A stretch of 38,550 nt of DNA from a virus. A program made the translations under genes and the position numbers. Under the pieces are notes generated by a model. The model was not told where the DNA came from. It saw only the letters and a program-made list of their open reading frames with translations, and made no database searches. The stretch is from IMG/VR virus record IMGVR_UViG_3300020462_000019, positions 1 through 38,550 of that record; one strand, given 5' to 3'. Below, in pieces: positions 4,347 through 38,550 of the stretch (the stretch's first letter is position 1; each line of letters begins with the position of its first letter).

Positions 4347-7192
4347 TGATTGAACAAGGATTATTTAAGAATCACCAAATAGGTAAGGATGGATTCAATT
4401 GGTGGATCGGTCAGATTGCACCTGAAGAATCGTGGAAAGAAAACATTCCTGGTGTTCCTGTAGAAACTAACGAAGACGAATCCTATAAGGGATTTGGTGA
4501 AAGGTGCCGTGTGCGTATCATTGGTGCCCAAACACATGAAAAGAGTGAGGTTTCTGATGAGGAACTTCCATGGGCAACTGTGATGTATCCTGTCACTGCT
4601 GGTGGCGGTGGTAGAGGATCATACCAATCAATGAATTTGGTTGGTGGTAACTTTGTATTTGGTTTCTACATTGATGGTGATGATGCCCAACAACCAGTTA
4701 TCATGGGTGCCATTGGGTATAATGATTATCAGGAGGTGATGAAACAAGCTGGTGATACTGGGTTTATTCCTCACAGTGGATGGAATCAAGAGCAAGAAGG
4801 TAATGAGGTTCCATATTATAGTATAAAAGAAGGTGGCTCTGGGATGACAGCAGCCCAAGAGTTTGCTTTTGGTGCTAAAAACAATGATCTGATTATTGAG
4901 AGTACTCAGGGTTCCAATTCTCTCAAAGAGATGTCTTCCAAGAAGATGGAAGAGAAGGGTAAGATAGAAGAACCCATGGCCAAAAATGAGGATTGTGAAC
5001 CAGTCCCAACAAACAGAATCCAGAAACAAATGCAGAATGTGATGCATGAGATGGAATCTGTTCAGAGATCTGCTTATGATATTAGAGAGGCAATCTCATC
5101 TGGAACTTCTGATATTCAAGGAAAGATTGCTGGATTACAAGCCAAGTTGGCAAAGTTTGTATCTTCTATTATGAAGTCAATCTTCTCACAGATTGAGAAG
5201 ACTGTATTGAAAGCACTGAATGATGCTGTTAAGCCAACACAGAATCTTCTCATGCCAAATGAGAGACCAATACTCAAAACAGCAATGGATACAGCAAATG
5301 ATCTGATTGCTTGTTTGTTCAAGAAGATCTTTGGTCAGTTACTTGATATGGTAATGGGTTTTCTTTCTGATGCTCTTGGTACTGGGGGAAGTGGTGGTAG
5401 TGGTGAAGGTCAGAAGGTTATCAATGTTCCTACTTGTTATGTGAATGATTTTATTGGTAGTGCTATTGGATCAGTTAGTAATGAGATTGACAGTGAACTC
5501 AGTGGTATCACATCAAATTTAAATGGTATTCTAGATGGTATGTCTGCAGCTTCATCAGCTGCTGGTGGATTATCTTCTGCGGCTGATGGAGCAGCTGGAG
5601 CACTTGGATCAATTGGTGATATGGGTGGGTTTGATATTGGTAGTATCATACAAGATCTGTTCTCTTTCTTAGGATGTGAAGAAGAAAACAAGTGTCCAAC
5701 AGTAGACACTTGGAGTATGTGGTACGGTATGGATAGTGGTAACTCCAATTCAATGTCAAATATGGCATCCATTGGTTCCAAATCCAAATCCAAATCAAGT
5801 AAGAATAAGAATGTTGGTGATGGATTCAAGGATATGTCTTTTGATGACATATACAGTGAGAGTACTTGTGGAAATAATAGAAGCGGCAATAATGGTGGAG
5901 GAAGTGGAAACAATGGTGGTGGAGGAAGTGGAAACAATGGAGGAGGTAGTACAGGTGGTAACAATAATAATATAGGGAACAGTACACCTGGATATGATTG
6001 GGGTAATGGTGGTACTATTGATCCAATCACATGTGGGCCACCACTTGTTAGAATTACTGGTGGATGGAATGCAAAAGGAAATGCTATTGTATCTCAATCA
6101 GGTAAGGTATTATCAGTTGATATTACAGATCTGGGTGTCAATTATGATAGTTACAAATCAAGAATTATTGTTATAGATCAGTGTGGTAAAGGAAACAATG
6201 CTGTCCTAATTCCTATCATTGATGAAGTGACTGTAACATCTAATGATGATGGAACATTGAACCTTAATCATGGTGGAATGAATACCACGATGCGGGGAGC
6301 CAGGATGTCATCTGGTAATCTTGGATATGAGGACTCAAGAGGGACACTAATACCTATCCTTAATAAGGATGGTGCACCAGTTAAGGAAGGTGATGTAACT
6401 AATAGTGTTGTTGATGGTATAATTATAAAACCTGGTACTGGATACTTACCATCACCTGATGGATCTCTTGGTGGAGATAAAAGAGAGTGGGCAAGACCTG
6501 ATGATACTATTATTAGAAAGCCTGGTGGTGGGTGGTTAACACCTGTTCCTCCTGGTAATGATATTGATCTTGAACCTGGTGATACTGTTACTACACCTGG
6601 ATCATCAAATCCTGTTTATGCAGAACCTGGAGAACAGTTAATCAATCCTGGTGTACCAACAATAATTGAAAACACTTCAACCATTACTGCACCACCAAGA
6701 AGGCCTGATGCCGGTATTTCTGCAGAATATCCAACAAATAGTGAAGGTGCATATCCAGTTGTTCTGTATCTTTGTGAAATCGTTATCCTTAATCCTGGAT
6801 TCAATTATTCACCTAATGATGAGATTGTAATATCACCAAACAGTGGTGCTGTGGCAGTTCCTAAGTTTGATAAACAGGGAAGAGTATTATCCATCAAAGT
6901 AACAAAAGGTGGTGAAGGATTCACTGATATTCCATATATCTACATCAAATCACAAACTGGTTATAATGCAAAACTAGTTCCTAAGTTCTGTATAGATAGA
7001 GTATCAGATGCATTGAGTGAACCAAAATCTCAAGATAAGTTGGTTACTGTTATTGATTGTGTGAGTAGATCACCAGTTGGATATCTCAATGGAAAACCAT
7101 ACTACGGACCTTATCATGAACATAAAGGTGTAAGAATGGTCGGATACAAACACACTTCCGCAAAACATGCAACACTTACAGCTAGACCATGA
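4346..7192 (+). CDS. Baseplate hub/spike protein with gp5-like N-terminal OB domain
   Basis: The product has 948 residues. Residues 1-150 look like the OB-fold of T4 gp5: an N-terminal FNWWIGQIAPEE, then CRVRIIGAQ, LPWATVMYPVT and GNFVFGFYIDGDDAQQPVIMG, in the same order as in gp5. No lysozyme domain follows. There is instead a helical section (about 220-320), a Gly/Ser/Ala-rich section, and a Gly/Asn/Ser linker (about 508-545) encoded by short direct DNA repeats near 5880-5960. Beta-rich repeats then carry GTGYLPSP and NPGFNYSPNDEI type motifs. The C-terminus YYGPYHEHKGVRMVG is a tail often seen on phage structural proteins. The TAATG start overlap couples it to the gp27-like gene, and the ATGA at the end couples it to the spike-like gene. 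The lytic function seems to have moved to the amidase protein upstream. Confidence 0.68.
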   Translation: MIEQGLFKNHQIGKDGFNWWIGQIAPEESWKENIPGVPVETNEDESYKGFGERCRVRIIGAQTHEKSEVSDEELPWATVMYPVTAGGGGRGSYQSMNLVGGNFVFGFYIDGDDAQQPVIMGAIGYNDYQEVMKQAGDTGFIPHSGWNQEQEGNEVPYYSIKEGGSGMTAAQEFAFGAKNNDLIIESTQGSNSLKEMSSKKMEEKGKIEEPMAKNEDCEPVPTNRIQKQMQNVMHEMESVQRSAYDIREAISSGTSDIQGKIAGLQAKLAKFVSSIMKSIFSQIEKTVLKALNDAVKPTQNLLMPNERPILKTAMDTANDLIACLFKKIFGQLLDMVMGFLSDALGTGGSGGSGEGQKVINVPTCYVNDFIGSAIGSVSNEIDSELSGITSNLNGILDGMSAASSAAGGLSSAADGAAGALGSIGDMGGFDIGSIIQDLFSFLGCEEENKCPTVDTWSMWYGMDSGNSNSMSNMASIGSKSKSKSSKNKNVGDGFKDMSFDDIYSESTCGNNRSGNNGGGSGNNGGGGSGNNGGGSTGGNNNNIGNSTPGYDWGNGGTIDPITCGPPLVRITGGWNAKGNAIVSQSGKVLSVDITDLGVNYDSYKSRIIVIDQCGKGNNAVLIPIIDEVTVTSNDDGTLNLNHGGMNTTMRGARMSSGNLGYEDSRGTLIPILNKDGAPVKEGDVTNSVVDGIIIKPGTGYLPSPDGSLGGDKREWARPDDTIIRKPGGGWLTPVPPGNDIDLEPGDTVTTPGSSNPVYAEPGEQLINPGVPTIIENTSTITAPPRRPDAGISAEYPTNSEGAYPVVLYLCEIVILNPGFNYSPNDEIVISPNSGAVAVPKFDKQGRVLSIKVTKGGEGFTDIPYIYIKSQTGYNAKLVPKFCIDRVSDALSEPKSQDKLVTVIDCVSRSPVGYLNGKPYYGPYHEHKGVRMVGYKHTSAKHATLTARP

Positions 7193-33852: not shown

Positions 33853-34449
33853 ATGACTTTTCTGGAGTTTATGACTGAAGGCAAGGCCTTAGACCCTAGT
33901 TTAGCTGGTGGTGCATCTATCAGACAGACTGGAGCTGGTGGTCGTAAGTATCCAGAAAGGAAGAAGGGTGAAGGTGAGAGAACGAGAGTAAAAGCAGTGG
34001 GTGGTGGTAAAACTGCACCCGCTGCTTCATATAAAGATAGAAAGGATATTGGAGCAACTAAAGCACGTTCTGATGTAGAACAACAACCTACCAAAGAGAG
34101 AGGTAGTGCAGCTCTATCAGCTAAGGAACAACAAAGGAAGGCTTACTTAGAGAGAAAGGCGAGAGAAAGAGGTGGATCTGCAGCACCAAAGAAGAAAGAG
34201 GCAGAGAAGACAGCTACACAACTACTCAAGAAGAAGACAACCAAGGCTGTATCACCTGATTACAAACCAGCCAAAGCTTCTGGTCATACTAGAGCTGAGA
34301 GAGATAAGATTAGAGGTGATGGTGAGAGAATGTTGAGAGGTATCATGAAGGACCAAGAGACCTCCAAGTATAAGAAAGAAACTGGTGTTAATCCTGATGC
34401 TAAAGGAAGACAAAAGATTCTGGGAAGGGTTAATGCCAGGATGAAATGA
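33853..34449 (+). CDS. Very basic late protein, candidate internal head protein
   Basis: The product has 198 residues, strongly basic and Lys/Arg/Gly/Ala-rich with hardly any hydrophobic core (for example KKEAEKTATQLLKKKTTKA), suggesting a disordered nucleic-acid-binding protein. The first residues MTFLEFMTEGKA resemble the capsid-targeting sequence of T4 internal proteins (MKTYQEFIAEA), which the head protease gp21 removes after Glu; MTE-G would be the matching cut site. A CTAAATA late box precedes it and an intrinsic terminator follows it, making a one-gene late transcript. Predicted role: packaged in the prohead with DNA and possibly injected into the host. The targeting-signal match is short, so this is inference. 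Confidence 0.55.
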   Translation: MTFLEFMTEGKALDPSLAGGASIRQTGAGGRKYPERKKGEGERTRVKAVGGGKTAPAASYKDRKDIGATKARSDVEQQPTKERGSAALSAKEQQRKAYLERKARERGGSAAPKKKEAEKTATQLLKKKTTKAVSPDYKPAKASGHTRAERDKIRGDGERMLRGIMKDQETSKYKKETGVNPDAKGRQKILGRVNARMK

Positions 34450-34459
34450 TGTTATAATA

Positions 34460-34484
34460 AGAGGGTTAGACACCCTCTTTTTTT
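34460..34484 (+). terminator. Rho-independent terminator abutting the next start codon
   Basis: AGAGGGT (34460-34466) and ACCCTCT (34472-34478) form a 7-bp stem with a 5-base loop, followed by a run of seven T ending at 34484. The ATG of the next gene is at 34485, so the terminator fills the position of its ribosome site. Confidence 0.82.
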
Positions 34485-34760
34485 ATGAAGCGAATTGCCA
34501 AAAAGAACGTCAGTATTTCACTCAAGGGTGGTAGGGACAATTTTAAGACAATTAAATTGGTTGAAGGTAAACCAGTTGTAGAATCAAAACTTCTTGAGAT
34601 GTCTAGAAGACAAATTAATGAGTATACAGAAGAAGTTTATGAAGGTGCAGATCTCTCATTCTTGACACCAGAAGATAAGAAGTATTATAATAAGAACAAG
34701 AAACACCCAGACATGCAGTGGGCACTTGATATGGTTTATGAAGATAGAACGACCAATTAA
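34485..34760 (+). CDS. Small basic protein, function unknown
   Basis: The product has 91 residues starting directly after the terminator T-run, with no ribosome site. The N-terminus is basic (MKRIAKKNVSISLKGG) and the C-terminal half contains FLTPEDKKYYNKNKKHPDMQ. A TATAAT at 34453-34458, before the terminator, might start a message that begins inside the hairpin. An internal Met at about position 39 is a possible alternative start. The next gene overlaps its end by 23 bases. No family recognised. Confidence 0.55.
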   Translation: MKRIAKKNVSISLKGGRDNFKTIKLVEGKPVVESKLLEMSRRQINEYTEEVYEGADLSFLTPEDKKYYNKNKKHPDMQWALDMVYEDRTTN

Positions 34761-34956
34761 TTCAGAAATACTGACACCGAAACCACGTAAAACTGGTTTC
34801 GTTGTTGGTGACTGGGATGACCCAAATTGTTATGCCTGTATACCATTTAAGAACCAACTTATGGTGATTCATAAAGGATCTCAACTTAAGGTGTGCAGGA
34901 ATGATGAAAGTGCAATCAATTTCATTAAGAAACACAAGAAACGTAAAAGGAGTTAA
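34738..34956 (+). CDS. Small basic protein, function unknown
   Basis: The product has 72 residues from ATG 34738, overlapping the previous gene by 23 bases. The middle TGFVVGDWDDPNCYACIPF, with two nearby cysteines, and the very basic end (KKHKKRKRS) could bind nucleic acid. No ribosome site better than weak purine content is visible. Function unknown. Confidence 0.55.
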   Translation: MKIERPINSEILTPKPRKTGFVVGDWDDPNCYACIPFKNQLMVIHKGSQLKVCRNDESAINFIKKHKKRKRS

Positions 34957-34959
34957 ACA

Positions 34960-35118
34960 ATGGCTTTGAAAACCTATCGTTGCAACATCATCTTTAAAGA
35001 TGGTAATCCACCCATCAAAGAAATTGTTGAGGCTAACAACCCACCACAAGCACGGGATTTTGCTGAACGTAGGTTTGGTGGTAAGTGTACATCAGCTAAT
35101 CAAGTATTCATTAAATAA
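34960..35118 (+). CDS. Small protein, function unknown
   Basis: The product has 52 residues with AAAAGGAG at 34946-34953, a strong ribosome site overlapping the upstream stop. Sequence IKEIVEANNPPQARDFAERR followed by FGGKCTSANQV is a pattern I associate with a recurrent small cyanophage protein (strand, then a helix with Ala-Arg). Its stop codon touches the first copy of the leader repeat, so the repeat array begins right after it. Confidence 0.65.
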   Translation: MALKTYRCNIIFKDGNPPIKEIVEANNPPQARDFAERRFGGKCTSANQVFIK

Positions 35119-35155
35119 GTTACTCACCTCTAAAGTGCTTCACTAGTGTAGAAAC
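35118..35155 (+). repeat. Leader repeat copy 1
   Basis: Starts AGTTACTCACCTCTAAA, then GTGCTTCACTAGTGTAGAAAC. It lies 11 bases before ATG 35167. Shares the first 17 bases exactly with copies 2, 3 and 4. Confidence 0.9.
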
Positions 35156-35166
35156 CTACTTACTAC

Positions 35167-35328
35167 ATGACACGTCCCGAACCACTCCTTTCATTCTCTG
35201 ATTATGTTGAGGATTTTAAGGCAAGGGTTGAAATTCACAACTATGAGGTGAAGAATCTCCGAAAGGATATTAGATTTGGATTTGATTTCCTATCAGACAG
35301 AATCTATTTCAATCTTGTGAACAAATGA
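35167..35328 (+). CDS. Small protein behind leader repeat 1, function unknown
   Basis: The product has 53 residues: MTRPEPLLSFSDYVEDFKAR, then helical and basic (VKNLRKDIRFGFDFLSDRIY). There is no ribosome site; the bases before ATG are pyrimidine/A-rich (CCTACTTACTAC). The start is set by its position relative to the repeat, the same as in the four other repeat-led genes. An intrinsic terminator follows 7 bases after the stop, making it a one-gene cassette. Confidence 0.62.
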   Translation: MTRPEPLLSFSDYVEDFKARVEIHNYEVKNLRKDIRFGFDFLSDRIYFNLVNK

Positions 35329-35334
35329 TAAACG

Positions 35335-35357
35335 AGGGAGGGAAACCTCCCTTTTTT
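35335..35357 (+). terminator. Rho-independent terminator with GAAA loop
   Basis: A 7-bp stem (35335-35341 with 35346-35352) with a GAAA tetraloop is followed by TTTTTT. It separates the first repeat-led gene from the second and is followed by TATACT and repeat copy 2. Confidence 0.88.
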
Positions 35358-35370
35358 GTTGCTTATATGT

Positions 35371-35376
35371 TATACT
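35371..35376 (+). promoter_or_regulatory. Possible -10 element upstream of leader repeat 2
   Basis: TATACT at 35371-35376 would start transcription near 35383, the first bases of repeat copy 2. If used, the repeat would be a transcribed 5' leader rather than the promoter itself. No good -35 was found and the other copies lack this exact box. Confidence 0.35.
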
Positions 35377-35381
35377 ATTAA

Positions 35382-35419
35382 AGTTACTCACCTCTAAAGT
35401 GCTCTACTAATGTAGACAC
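35382..35419 (+). repeat. Leader repeat copy 2
   Basis: AGTTACTCACCTCTAAA, then GTGCTCTACTAATGTAGACAC. It lies 11 bases before ATG 35431. It shares the upstream extension CTATTAA with copy 4. Confidence 0.9.
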
Positions 35420-35430
35420 CACATAAACAC

Positions 35431-35661
35431 ATGAATCATTCAACTACAGCACAACGAGTTGGCACACTTATTGAATTGGCTGAACTGAAGAAAACTCTTC
35501 GTCGTCAAGATTTCAAGTTCACACCAGATCAGCAAGAACGTTATGATCTTCTCCTTTCACTTCGTAGGCTTCATGTAGCTGAATACTATGAAGACGATAA
35601 TGTTTGGATCGGACCTTCACTGGCTGGTAAGAAACTAGAAGAGAGTGATTCAGACGACTAA
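35431..35661 (+). CDS. Small helical protein behind leader repeat 2
   Basis: The product has 76 residues, helical and charged: GTLIELAELKKTLRRQDFKF, then QQERYDLLLSLRRLHVAEYY, with an acidic end EESDSDD. It could be a coiled-coil or helical-hairpin protein. There is no ribosome site before the ATG (CACATAAACAC). Function unknown. A T-rich stretch (35675-35687) that could form a weak long-loop terminator follows. Confidence 0.65.
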   Translation: MNHSTTAQRVGTLIELAELKKTLRRQDFKFTPDQQERYDLLLSLRRLHVAEYYEDDNVWIGPSLAGKKLEESDSDD

Positions 35662-35695
35662 CACGCACTCACAACACTCTTTTTTTATTAAACAA

Positions 35696-36046
35696 ATGAC
35701 TGTAAGTTTCGACAAAGGTGAATTCGTCACCATTGAATGTTTCTATCTCTCACAGGAGGATGGAATTATCTATGAAGAAGATCGTAACGAAGATGTTGAT
35801 ACTTACTGGACAGAGGAGAAAGGTGATTTAATGGAATATGTGTTAGATCAATGTAAGTATATTGAGACGAAAGATCCTGTGATTGTTGATGTTCTCCCAC
35901 GTAAGTGGGCAGAGTTTGATGATGATGGAAACCTAGAAGATTACGGCGACACATGTTATGGAACCGAACGATATATTTGGCACAACAGTAAACTTAAAAG
36001 AGAACATGAGTTCTTGATTTCCATTGATTGTGGAGTAGGCAAATGA
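35696..36046 (+). CDS. Acidic protein, function unknown
   Basis: The product has 116 residues from ATG 35696, markedly acidic (EEDRNEDVDTYWTEEKGD, WAEFDDDGNLEDYGD). Such highly acidic small phage proteins sometimes mimic DNA, but nothing here proves it. It lacks both a ribosome site and a full leader repeat; the preceding bases are a T-run and AT-rich DNA. The next small ORF overlaps its stop (ATGA). Confidence 0.6.
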   Translation: MTVSFDKGEFVTIECFYLSQEDGIIYEEDRNEDVDTYWTEEKGDLMEYVLDQCKYIETKDPVIVDVLPRKWAEFDDDGNLEDYGDTCYGTERYIWHNSKLKREHEFLISIDCGVGK

Positions 36047-36165
36047 ACAGCCTCAAACGTGTATGTTCACTGAAAACAAAAGAACTTCGGTGGACTTATG
36101 ATGGTAAAGTGTTACTTACCAACTGGCAAGTAGCAGCCATCGGTCGAAAGACCAAGAGTAACTAG
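36043..36165 (+). CDS. Small basic protein, function unknown (40 residues)
   Basis: ATG 36043 overlaps the previous TGA, and the frame stops at TAG 36163-36165, which is already inside leader repeat copy 3. The product is basic: MNSLKRVCSLKTKELRWTYD and an end IGRKTKSN. Pairing with the acidic protein just upstream by translational coupling is notable. Confidence 0.5.
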   Translation: MNSLKRVCSLKTKELRWTYDGKVLLTNWQVAAIGRKTKSN

Positions 36166-36201
36166 TTACTCACCTCTAAACTGCTCCACTATTGTAAACA
36201 A
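36164..36201 (+). repeat. Leader repeat copy 3
   Basis: AGTTACTCACCTCTAAA, then CTGCTCCACTATTGTAAACAA. It lies 10 bases before ATG 36212 and overlaps the stop codon of the upstream small gene. Confidence 0.9.
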
Positions 36202-36211
36202 CTTCTTTATT

Positions 36212-36871
36212 ATGTCCGGTAATCACAATCACGACCACGACCACCACGATCATTCTCATGAGTGGGAACATGATGGTCGATTTGAAGCAGTCATTGGCAG
36301 ATATGAGGATGGCGATGGTTGGTGGGCATCTTATTTCACTGATTTAATCAACAATTCAGATGGCATCATTGATATCCATATTGCCGAGGACACGATGAGT
36401 CATCAGGAGATCGAGTTCATCAACGAGTTGATTGATGATATTGAGGAAGTTATCGACACAGAAATTCAAATTGAATCAAGGAAAGTTGACTCTGACATTA
36501 CAATTGCAAGAGTACTTGGTTATGAACAATTTGATGTATTGACAGGTATAGATTATTCTGACGTTGATGGACTCGCATTCCTTGATGAGGATGGTGATCA
36601 CATCTTTGCCACATTCAATGACTCTGAGTTTGAAACTGAACCGGTATATAATGAATATGGTGATGTTGTAGATTTCAACACAACACTTAGTGATGATACT
36701 AAGTACGTTATAGCACACGAACTCCTTCACGCTCTGGGGTTACAACATCCAGACGATGATGGATATAATGTTGGATACACGGCAGACGATACTCTGATGA
36801 GTTACAATCGTACAGGAAACTTTGATCTTACTAACATAGATTCCACAGCTCTCGATACCCTATGGGGGTGA
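36212..36871 (+). CDS. Serralysin-like metzincin with His-rich N-terminus
   Basis: The product has 219 residues. IAHELLHALGLQHP is a full metzincin zinc site: H169, E170, H173, G176, H179, P180. TLMSYNR with M196 provides the Met-turn at the right distance, and the end DSTALDTLWG parallels the last helix of M10 serralysin catalytic domains. No RTX calcium repeats follow, so it is a bare protease domain. The first 20 residues hold eight His alternating with Asp/Asn (HNHDHDHHDHSHEWEH), a likely zinc or other metal store or sensor. No signal peptide is present, so it would act in the cytoplasm or be carried by the virion. It is preceded by leader repeat 3 and followed by repeat 4. Confidence 0.8.
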   Translation: MSGNHNHDHDHHDHSHEWEHDGRFEAVIGRYEDGDGWWASYFTDLINNSDGIIDIHIAEDTMSHQEIEFINELIDDIEEVIDTEIQIESRKVDSDITIARVLGYEQFDVLTGIDYSDVDGLAFLDEDGDHIFATFNDSEFETEPVYNEYGDVVDFNTTLSDDTKYVIAHELLHALGLQHPDDDGYNVGYTADDTLMSYNRTGNFDLTNIDSTALDTLWG

Positions 36872-36879
36872 TCTATTAA

Positions 36880-36917
36880 AGTTACTCACCTCTAAACTGC
36901 TCCATTGATGTAACCAC
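36880..36917 (+). repeat. Leader repeat copy 4
   Basis: AGTTACTCACCTCTAAA, then CTGCTCCATTGATGTAACCAC. It lies 13 bases before ATG 36931. GTTAC at its start and GTAAC near its end are inverted. Confidence 0.9.
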
Positions 36918-36930
36918 TGACTTTCCACTT

Positions 36931-37821
36931 ATGCCAAACACACATCTCCAACATCCCGAAGACACCATTCTTACAGGTGATCTTCGTGTACTTCGTGACT
37001 TGTATGGTAGAGGTCATGTTTCACTAAAAATTGATGGAGCACCATCAGTTGTATGGGGTCATCACCCCGATACTGATGAGTTCTTTGTTTGTACCAAAGC
37101 TGCATTCAACAAGAAAAAGAACCGTATCTGTTACACAACAGATGATATCAACACATACTTTGGTCATCAAGATGATGTAGCCAACATGTTGTTTCTGATG
37201 TTGAAGTTGTTGTCTCAGAAATCATTCCCTGGTGTTTATCAAGGTGATTTCATGGGTTTCGGTGGCACTGACACCTTCAAGACCAACACTCTAACGTATG
37301 TCTTCCCTGAGGATGTGTCACAGAGTATTGTCATCGCACCTCACACAATCTACAATGTGACTGACAAACTCTCTAACGCAGTTGCTGAACCTCTGAGAGA
37401 GATCTTTGATGATACCAAACACATCAAATGGGTTCAACCCTCTGTTGATTATGTGTACAACGACATCAAACCTCCTGTCATCAACACTGAGAGTGTTGAG
37501 TTTATGACAAAGAAAGAGTCTGATGTTACTCAGATTCAAATCAACGCTCTCATCAAGTCAGGTCAATCACCTACTGATAAAGATCTCAACTATCTCTTAG
37601 GTGACATCTATCTCACTAATATCTACCAAATGGTTATCGATATCAAAGAAGATCTCATGGATTGTATGATCGTCACTGACTCACCTAAGTGTTATCTTCC
37701 TGATGGTACTGAGGTTGTTGGAGAGGGTTTCGTATTCTACTCTGAGTCCGGTAGATCTTACAAGTTGGTTGATCGTCCAGTCTTCGCCTATACCAACTTC
37801 ACACAGGGTAAGTTCAACTGA
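36931..37821 (+). CDS. KxDG nucleotidyltransferase/ligase-like protein
   Basis: The product has 296 residues. HVSLKIDGAPSVVWG contains motif I of covalent nucleotidyltransferases (K33, D35, G36). GVYQGDFMGF (101-110) fits motif III, GEGFVFY (264-270) motif IV, and SYKLVD (276-281) motif V with K278. The order and spacing agree with ATP-dependent nucleic acid ligases, although the insert between III and IV is long. The N-terminus THLQHPEDTILTGD is typical of a phage family that I recall as a DUF with this KxDG core. Possible roles are RNA repair, nick sealing or tRNA repair. No OB or zinc domain is visible. It is preceded by leader repeat 4 and ends just before repeat 5. Confidence 0.65.
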   Translation: MPNTHLQHPEDTILTGDLRVLRDLYGRGHVSLKIDGAPSVVWGHHPDTDEFFVCTKAAFNKKKNRICYTTDDINTYFGHQDDVANMLFLMLKLLSQKSFPGVYQGDFMGFGGTDTFKTNTLTYVFPEDVSQSIVIAPHTIYNVTDKLSNAVAEPLREIFDDTKHIKWVQPSVDYVYNDIKPPVINTESVEFMTKKESDVTQIQINALIKSGQSPTDKDLNYLLGDIYLTNIYQMVIDIKEDLMDCMIVTDSPKCYLPDGTEVVGEGFVFYSESGRSYKLVDRPVFAYTNFTQGKFN

Positions 37822-37825
37822 TTAA

Positions 37826-37863
37826 AGTTACTCACCCCTAAACTGCTCCACTAGTGTAACCAC
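37826..37863 (+). repeat. Leader repeat copy 5
   Basis: AGTTACTCACCCCTAAA, with one change from copies 1-4, then CTGCTCCACTAGTGTAACCAC. It lies 16 bases before ATG 37880. GTTAC and GTAAC are inverted here as in copy 4. Confidence 0.9.
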
Positions 37864-37879
37864 TCATTCAAAACACATC

Positions 37880-38074
37880 ATGAACAACCTGACACCTCAA
37901 GCCGAAAAAGAAATCGACATCATGAGCGAAACCATCTTCGAAAGGTTTATGGTTTTCATCAAAGAAGAGGACGAACTGACCTCAAAGGCTCTCATGGATG
38001 AGTGGATCGTTGATGGTCAGGATCCTGATGATGGGAACGTCGAATTCCTCACACTCAATCACATTGATGATTGA
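37880..38074 (+). CDS. Small acidic protein behind leader repeat 5
   Basis: The product has 64 residues, acidic and helical (EKEIDIMSETIFERFMVFIK) with an Asp-rich end (VDGQDPDDGNVEF). No ribosome site precedes ATG 37880 (AAAACACATC). Function unknown. The following 40 bases hold a degenerate repeat-like stretch (ATCACCTCTCTCAC) before the next gene. Confidence 0.62.
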   Translation: MNNLTPQAEKEIDIMSETIFERFMVFIKEEDELTSKALMDEWIVDGQDPDDGNVEFLTLNHIDD

Positions 38075-38115
38075 TATCACCTCTCTCACATTTCAACTCT
38101 AACTTCTTTATTATC

Positions 38116-38475
38116 ATGACTGGAACTTATCAAGACTACCTCGCACAAAAAGATCAAGTCAAGGCTGTTAAACAGGCCAGGGTTCGTGTTGGCATCTCTT
38201 GGTTACTTCACGCCTTTACCTGTCCTCCTATTGTATCCCTTGTTTACTCCATCAAATCAGAGAACTATGTTCCAGTGTTGGCAGCAACTGGTGTGGCTTG
38301 TGTAACAGCTCCATTGGCTATCTTTGATTATGGTATCACATTCTTTGTGGCAGCACCTGTAACCTCAGCTGTTCTTATCCAAACCAAGGCCACCAATCGT
38401 AGGAATCAACTTGGCATCTTTGGACCAGAACAAGCAGACGCTATGATGTTCTCCAACTTCCAATCAAACACCTGA
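38116..38475 (+). CDS. Small integral membrane protein
   Basis: The product has 119 residues from ATG 38116; an in-frame start at 38071 would use non-coding-like leader sequence. A basic N-terminal part (VKAVKQARVRVGISW) leads into hydrophobic segments: about residues 26-44 (ISWLLHAFTCPPIVSLVYSI), about 50-66 (VPVLAATGVACVTAPLAIF) and about 70-88 (ITFFVAAPVTSAVLI). A soluble tail follows. Two or three membrane spans are predicted. The leader CTTCTTTATTATC is nearly the same as that before ATG 36212, though the full repeat is missing. Function unknown. Confidence 0.62.
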   Translation: MTGTYQDYLAQKDQVKAVKQARVRVGISWLLHAFTCPPIVSLVYSIKSENYVPVLAATGVACVTAPLAIFDYGITFFVAAPVTSAVLIQTKATNRRNQLGIFGPEQADAMMFSNFQSNT

Positions 38476-38540
38476 TACATTTGTATCACCTGAGACCCTA
38501 GTGGTGGCCTGGGTTCTCAGGATATCATAAACTCTTTTTT
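38474..38540 (+). terminator. Two tandem hairpins with distal T-run
   Basis: GATAC (38474-38478) pairs with GTATC (38483-38487), overlapping the stop codon. CCTGAGA plus CCC (38489-38498) pairs with GGG plus TCTCAGG (38511-38521) with a small bulge. A run of six T lies at 38535-38540, 14 bases further on, so terminator activity is likely but not classical. Confidence 0.5.
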
Positions 38541-38550
38541 CCATATCGGG

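What the first reader, a model, noticed from the sequence alone, without database searches (positions are those of the whole stretch)
35118..37863. Five-copy leader repeat placed in front of five unrelated genes
A roughly 38-bp element (AGTTACTCACCTCTAAA, then NTGCTYYAYTRNTGTARAC-like sequence) occurs at 35118, 35382, 36164, 36880 and 37826. Every copy is in the same orientation, ends 10-17 bases before a start codon, and is followed by a start with no Shine-Dalgarno sequence. The genes behind are unrelated (two small unknowns, a metzincin, a ligase-like protein, an acidic protein), so the repeat is not a by-product of gene duplication. It may be a shared phage-specific promoter (TTACTC and TANTGT about 18 bases apart), a common 5' leader, or a recombination joint that lets cassettes shuffle, comparable to the promoter/stem-loop cassettes of T-even phages.
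Basis: partly seen in the sequence, partly recalled or inferred. Interest (0 to 1): 0.87.

Follow-up and report, generated by a model that had tools for sequence, protein, structure and literature searches.

The report
Phage-only promoter cassette before unrelated genes
A roughly 40-base signal is repeated in front of many unrelated small genes in marine cyanobacterial virus genomes, probably as a virus-specific gene switch, and in about a third of the copies the gene's start codon lies inside the signal itself.

Summary
In detail: five same-strand copies, one before each of five unrelated genes. Arrays of 7-15 copies occur in isolates SynMITS9220M01, RB11-B, RN05-S and S-B05 and in seven metagenomic records. 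The exact 16-mer is not above chance in cellular genomes.

Best reading: a lineage-specific, phage-only promoter. It has a conserved A/T box reaching into the preceding gene whatever its reading frame, no RNA structure signal, terminators abutting a few copies, and its genes rarely have a canonical sigma-70 site (21 of 629, control 54 of 629; ACG-2014f 12 of 31).

One result does not fit a simple -35/-10 promoter. In 157 of 452 copies an ATG overlaps the would-be -10, and in 149 of these it opens the long frame, so the transcript should begin at or before it. No T7-like polymerase, MotA or AsiA was detected. Start site and recognising factor are unknown. The recombination-joint idea has only modest support.

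The parts
35112..35155 (+). copy 1 of the element (A/T tract, TTACTCACCTCTAAA core, TAGTGTAG tail)
35376..35419 (+). copy 2 (tail TAATGTAG), preceded by an intrinsic terminator
36158..36201 (+). copy 3 (tail TATTGTAA)
36874..36917 (+). copy 4 (tail TGATGTAA)
37820..37863 (+). copy 5 (core TTACTCACCCCTAAA, tail TAGTGTAA)
35334..35357 (+). intrinsic terminator ending about 26 bases before the core of copy 2
35167..35328 (+). gene behind copy 1, 53 aa, phrog_27005 (unknown function)
   Evidence: searched without its first Met
35431..35661 (+). gene behind copy 2, 76 aa, phrog_3262 (unknown function)
36212..36871 (+). gene behind copy 3, 219 aa, weak Matrixin (M10) similarity below Pfam cut-off
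36931..37821 (+). gene behind copy 4, 296 aa, DUF6267 / phrog_455 (unknown function)
37880..38074 (+). gene behind copy 5, 64 aa, phrog_710 (unknown function)

Best explanation
The element is a promoter peculiar to a branch of T4-like cyanophages (Kyanoviridae). It is placed in front of individual genes in a variable block of small genes, so that each gene or short gene run has its own copy. Shown: the conserved anatomy (AAnTT box, AATTAAA tract, near-invariant TTACTCACCT, AAA, TAGTRTRA tail), same-strand arrays in front of gene starts, an upstream box independent of the upstream gene's frame, and terminators abutting a few copies. Inferred: RNA polymerase starts at the 3' end of the element or just before it; because the core is a poor sigma-70 -35 box and is not enriched in cellular genomes, recognition needs a phage-encoded or phage-modified factor, in the manner (not by homology) of T4 MotA. 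Where the start codon lies inside the tail, the mRNA would be leaderless or nearly so; elsewhere the start codon follows after a short leader. Recombination between copies as a by-product is possible.
For: Arrays of 7-15 copies in 11 of 18 records at up to 2 mismatches, each on one strand except S-B05, plus a single copy in G002; the P-SSM2 site looks like chance (10 of the 18 records were chosen because they were known to hold the core or a relative of it). 452 non-redundant copies give one logo. AAnTT (3 of 4 or more) at -19..-15 in 35% of 294 copies against 8.3% (sd 2.7) at other offsets, and in 44%, 27% and 32% by phase of the upstream gene against about 8%. Terminators just upstream in 14 of 632 copies against 3 of 632 in a control window. 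A strict sigma-70 site lies within 90 bases of the start in 21 of 629 element genes against 54 of 629 in a control window and 12 of 31 listed ACG-2014f starts. RNA folding z about 0 in 120 sampled copies; no Rfam match. 16-mer in 59 cellular stretches, one match each, none titled Synechococcus or Prochlorococcus.
Against: No transcript data. Two clues disagree on the start site: the A/T boxes would fit an UP-element geometry (recalled) with a start near +36, while 149 of 157 in-tail ATGs are in the open frame, which needs a start at or before +28. No recognising factor was identified. TTACTC matches TTGACA in only 2 of 6 positions. S-SM2 has a GGGGGGTCG version without TTACTCACC yet with the same tail. 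Terminators accompany about 2% of copies, so read-through from upstream is possible for most genes. Other comparison phages show few strict sigma-70 sites too (S-SRM01 1 of 18, S-SKS1 4 of 24, S-CREM2 4 of 21, S-BM3 3 of 14), so that contrast rests mainly on ACG-2014f.
Confidence: 0.68

Rival explanations
1. Ordinary host sigma-70 early promoter: TTACTC is the -35 box, TAGTRT the -10 box, transcription starts near +36, with an UP element in the A/T tracts.
For: 18-base spacing; T, A and T of the -10 conserved at 0.91, 0.85 and 0.92; A/T boxes sit where proximal and distal UP sites would (UP positions recalled); few start codons between +31 and +41 (9 of 295 copies without the in-tail ATG).
Against: 149 of 157 ATGs inside the '-10' are in the open frame (about one third expected: 96 of 295 in the other copies), and 70 of these 149 have no other in-frame ATG within 12 codons. 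Five copies before DUF6267-type genes (by N-terminus; two from close relatives) have this ATG with a terminator just upstream. TTACTC is a poor -35, and ten near-invariant bases are more than sigma region 4 should need.
Confidence: 0.17
2. An RNA-level 5' leader or translation signal carried on mRNAs that start further upstream.
For: Start codons at two set distances (+28, or +42..+50 in 207 of 295); genes lack Shine-Dalgarno sequences (by eye); tail TRTRA abuts or contains the start codon.
Against: Conserved AAnTT box lies in the upstream coding region in any frame; folding z about 0; terminators abut a few copies; the possible CAC/GTG stem is not kept, since position 15 is G in only 0.67-0.69 of copies while C7 is near-invariant.
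Confidence: 0.1
3. Primarily a recombination or cassette-exchange site; expression is incidental.
For: RB11-B against RN05-S: 7 of 16 alignment breakpoints at elements, null 2.1, P 0.005.
Against: RB11-B against S-B05 4 of 10 (P 0.07) and S-B05 against RN05-S 3 of 10 (P 0.23) are weak; elements are intergenic and breakpoints may favour gene ends anyway, which the null does not remove; the orientation and set distances to start codons point to an expression role.
Confidence: 0.05

Closest known systems
PeSLs (promoter-early stem-loops) of T4-type phages (Arbiol 2010; Comeau 2014: neither held, recalled; a passage on them seen in PMC4503421, which doubts their role in S-PM2)
   Same: Short repeated regulatory cassette in the variable region, before individual genes, same orientation as the genes, possibly a joint for gene exchange.
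   Different: Few canonical sigma-70 sites and usually no stem-loop (14 of 632 copies with a terminator). Several ACG-2014f promoters look far more like PeSLs (by eye).
T4 middle promoters (MotA box plus -10; recalled)
   Same: A near-invariant box in place of the -35 and a -10-like hexamer downstream suggest an activator-type promoter.
   Different: Different box, and no MotA or AsiA detected in the five element-bearing records searched; start codon inside the element in a third of copies.
S-SM2-type arrays (GGGGGGTCGNCTAAAGYGTCCCTATAGTRTRA)
   Same: Same right half and same two start-codon arrangements, among small genes upstream of purM and gp25 in S-SM2.
   Different: GGGGGGTCG replaces TTACTCACC; six of 44 matches lie upstream of a TTGACA site.
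Halovirus HF2 intergenic repeats that carry promoters (PMC8707807, abstract and outline seen)
   Same: Multi-copy intergenic virus repeats with promoter activity.
   Different: Archaeal virus and promoters; tested experimentally there, not here.

Membership tests
PeSL | sigma-70-like early promoter | tested here: not met
   strict sites in 21 of 629 element genes against 54 of 629 in a control window; ACG-2014f 12 of 31
PeSL | stem-loop terminator in the cassette | tested here: not met
   14 of 632 copies, control 3 of 632; RNA fold z about 0
PeSL | many copies before single genes in a variable region | tested here: met
   annotation
PeSL | gene exchange between copies | tested here: inconclusive
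   P 0.005, 0.07 and 0.23 in three related comparisons; may be confounded with gene ends
T4 middle promoter | MotA and AsiA encoded by the phage | tested here: not met
   T4 control found both; none over cut-off in 8 cyanophage records (one sub-threshold MotA match in Syn9, E 0.013)
T4 late promoter | TATAAATA at -10 | tested here: not met
   logo shows no such octamer (octamer named in PMC3037559 passages, as TATAAAT)
T7-like phage promoter | single-subunit RNA polymerase encoded by the phage | tested here: not met
   Syn5 control found
host sigma-70 promoter | transcription start about 7 bases after the -10 box | tested here: inconclusive
   no start-site data; in-frame ATGs inside the -10 argue against
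known structured RNA | Rfam family match | tested here: not met
   none up to E 1 in window 34000-38550

The most novel reading that the evidence does not exclude
A new class of phage promoter in which the gene's start codon can be the 3' end of the promoter: transcription starts at or just before TAGT|RTRA, giving leaderless mRNAs when the tail reads TAGTATGA and short-leader mRNAs when it reads TAGTGTAA. It is read by host polymerase redirected by a phage factor that is neither MotA/AsiA nor a T7-like polymerase, and it lets any ORF dropped behind it be expressed.
Probability: 0.35. Interest if true: 0.78.

Novelty: new variant of a known kind. Interest (0 to 1): 0.62.

Why it matters
Cyanophages of this group infect the ocean's main photosynthetic bacteria, and how they time their many small genes of unknown function is little known. 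A single recognisable signal marks these genes: it flags likely co-regulated genes in many uncultured genomes, helps to place gene starts, and points to an unidentified transcription factor. The in-tail start codon makes rival transcription-start models directly testable in phages already isolated.

Tried and rejected
T7-like promoter: the T7, T3 and Syn5 promoters look partly similar (recalled), but no such polymerase was found in the phages, and the base after AAA is variable. A second -10 reading (TAAAGT at -5..0, start near +7) fits the profile in most copies but fails in the S-SM2-type arrays and leaves TTACTCACC unexplained; kept only as a possibility. RNA hairpin: rejected. Anti-Shine-Dalgarno likeness (TCACCTC, recalled): no mechanism found. 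Lineage-specific DNA-binding protein: ORFs shared by SynMITS9220M01 and RB11-B and missing from S-SM2, Syn9, ACG-2014f and P-SSM4 gave, in the part I saw, small unknowns and a SET-domain-like ORF, none an obvious DNA-binding protein by eye; the output was cut in the middle and only two element-bearing genomes were compared, so this is weak.

Literature: the motif strings gave 118 papers, of which I saw 15 in the listing; the one cyanophage paper among these (PMC10286775, one passage seen) carries the string in a host 16S sequence. The SynMITS9220M01 announcement (PMC7378029) has no occurrence of promoter, repeat, motif or transcri. Passages of PMC3037559 and PMC5931967 tell of predicted sigma-70 and late promoters in cyanophages; the motif logos themselves are not held. 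I saw no description of the motif in the listings of searches; subscription papers, including the Syn9 transcriptome (looked up), are not held, so this does not show that it is unpublished.

Rows dropped before counts: L001-L005 (window pieces); copies with less than 40 or 300 bases upstream or less than 400 downstream; exact duplicates; copies with N. One search kept cores with at most 1 mismatch. In one search I had picked 19 ACG-2014f starts by eye; one search repeats the count on all 31 starts listed, which are themselves a selection from 53 annotated features.
Full report
Observation. The five copies are real, on one strand, and far above chance. Position 0 below is the first T of TTACTC. 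In the window the start codons are at +46 to +52, the genes behind look unrelated, and copy 2 has an intrinsic terminator just upstream.

Spread. A 16-base core at up to 2 mismatches was searched in 18 records. Eight of these are IMG/VR records chosen because they hold the core, two (SynMITS9220M01, S-B05) came from a BLAST hit to the element, two (RB11-B, RN05-S) from DNA similarity to the window, and six are other reference phages. Thirteen had a match. Eleven hold 7-15 copies: SynMITS9220M01 (10), RB11-B (11), S-B05 (12), RN05-S (10) and seven metagenomic records. G002 has a single copy near its contig end; P-SSM2 has one site no better than the reversed-pattern control, which gave 0-2 per record. 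The arrays span about 8-19 kb and lie on one strand; S-B05 has ten copies at 31.7-40.4 kb on one strand and two at 156-157 kb on the other. Syn9, S-PM2, S-SM2, S-TIM5 and Syn1 had none. In cellular genomes the exact 16-mer occurs in 59 stretches, one match each, below the roughly 120 expected from base counts (my arithmetic); none is titled Synechococcus or Prochlorococcus. How many such genomes the collection holds I did not count. The element looks phage-borne.

Anatomy. From 649 distinct and 452 non-redundant copies: AAnTT at -19..-15; AATTAAA at -8..-2; mostly G at -1; TTACTCACCT near-invariant at 0-9; AAA at 12-14; mostly [GC]TG at 15-17; TAGT at 24-27; purine at 28 (0.99 or more); T29, R30, A31. 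The upstream gene most often ends in a stop at -5 (183 of 632). AAnTT is present (3 of 4 bases or more) in 35% of 294 copies with dissimilar upstream sequence, against 8.3% (sd 2.7%, maximum 13.9%) at other offsets; it is seen in both start-codon classes. Split by phase of the upstream gene it is 44% of 117, 27% of 96 and 32% of 73, each against about 8%. A signal inside neighbouring coding sequence in any frame is most simply DNA-level. Folding of positions 0-45 gives z 0.01 in 120 sampled copies, and Rfam finds nothing in the window stretch.

Start codons. In 157 of 452 copies there is an ATG at 28-30, inside TAGTATGA. Its frame is open for 40 codons or more in 149 of 157; the same frame is open in 96 of 295 other copies, about the one third expected by chance. 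70 of the 149 have no other in-frame ATG within 12 codons. In the other 295 copies the first long open ATG is at +42..+50 in 207 and at +31..+41 in 9. The DUF6267-type gene occurs with both arrangements and a matching N-terminus (MKNTHLEHPED in-tail; MPNTHLQHPED in the window; MTQTHLEH in RB11-B), so the in-tail ATG is most likely its true start. In five copies before such genes (assigned by N-terminus; two from close relatives) a terminator ends just upstream of the element. Unless that terminator is read through, their mRNA starts between it and +28. This contradicts the plain reading of TAGTRT as a -10 box with a start near +36, although the A/T tracts would fit that geometry as an UP element (UP positions recalled). 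I leave this conflict open.

What other phages have. Around the DUF6267 gene of ACG-2014f, in a comparable block of small genes, 12 of 31 listed starts have a strict sigma-70 site within 90 bases, several overlapping GC-rich stem-loops (by eye). Other phages have fewer by the same pattern: S-CREM2 4 of 21, S-SKS1 4 of 24, S-BM3 3 of 14, S-SM2 3 of 26, S-SRM01 1 of 18. Element genes have 21 of 629, against 54 of 629 in a control window of the same size. S-SM2 and relatives have GGGGGGTCGNCTAAAGYGTCCCTATAGTRTRA instead: 44 matches, at least one evidently chance (L227), 15 with the in-tail ATG, 13 of these open. Six of the 44 lie upstream of a TTGACA site; for S-SM2 itself this is TTGACA-17-TATACT before the helicase gene. 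That tandem layout suggests the element is a different promoter class from the canonical early one.

Factor. Five element-bearing records (SynMITS9220M01, RB11-B, S-B05, RN05-S and the 222 kb contig G001) each have a sigma-70 region 2 match in a small ORF, taken to be the gp55-like late sigma (inferred); it is over the cut-off in two of the five, and SynMITS9220M01 has a second weak match, E 0.014. They have no detected T7-like polymerase, MotA or AsiA, with Syn5 and T4 as positive controls. A comparison for a lineage-specific binding protein gave no convincing candidate but was weak.

Recombination. Between RB11-B and RN05-S, 7 of 16 alignment breakpoints fall at elements (null 2.1, P 0.005); RB11-B and S-B05 4 of 10 (P 0.07); S-B05 and RN05-S 3 of 10 (P 0.23). 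The comparisons are not independent and the null does not correct for breakpoints favouring gene ends.

Verdict. A phage-specific promoter cassette is the most likely function (0.68). It may work like an activator-type phage promoter but fails tested features of PeSLs, T4 middle, T4 late and T7-like promoters, so it is filed under none. Start site and factor are not shown.

Noticed in passing
window 34662-34691 +: A perfect 12 of 12 sigma-70 consensus (TTGACA-18-TATAAT) lies inside an ORF about 430 bases upstream of the first copy; it could drive the start of the array. The scan as a whole found no more sites than shuffles (14 against 13.5).
   Followed up: no
window 34459-34479 +: Another intrinsic terminator-like site (AAGAGGGTTAGACACCCTCTT then T-run) just before the ORF at 34485.
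   Followed up: no
L161 (ACG-2014f), L162-L165, L159: A box GGCACA or GTCACA/GTCCAC recurs about 35 bases upstream of the -10 box in several cyanophages' canonical promoters, by eye; it may be a second conserved early-promoter feature.
   Followed up: partly
L160 about 6500-6535 (S-SM2): Before the helicase gene the -35 TTGACA sits in the loop of a long stem (CTGCAACACC...GGTGTTGTAG), a PeSL-like structure, with the S-SM2-type element just upstream.
   Followed up: partly
L159 7992 (S-BM3): DUF6267-type gene with TTGACT-17-CATACT ending 6 bases before its ATG, which would give a leaderless mRNA from a canonical promoter (by eye).
   Followed up: no
window 36931-37821: This DUF6267 protein has relatives in 457 phage records at E up to 1e-5, mostly cyanophages, plus two named Pelagibacter and one named Vibrio; its function is unknown.
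   Followed up: no
L144, L152, L153: In these arrays the copies at the 5' side tend to have the distant start codon and those at the 3' side the in-tail ATG (by eye).
   Followed up: no
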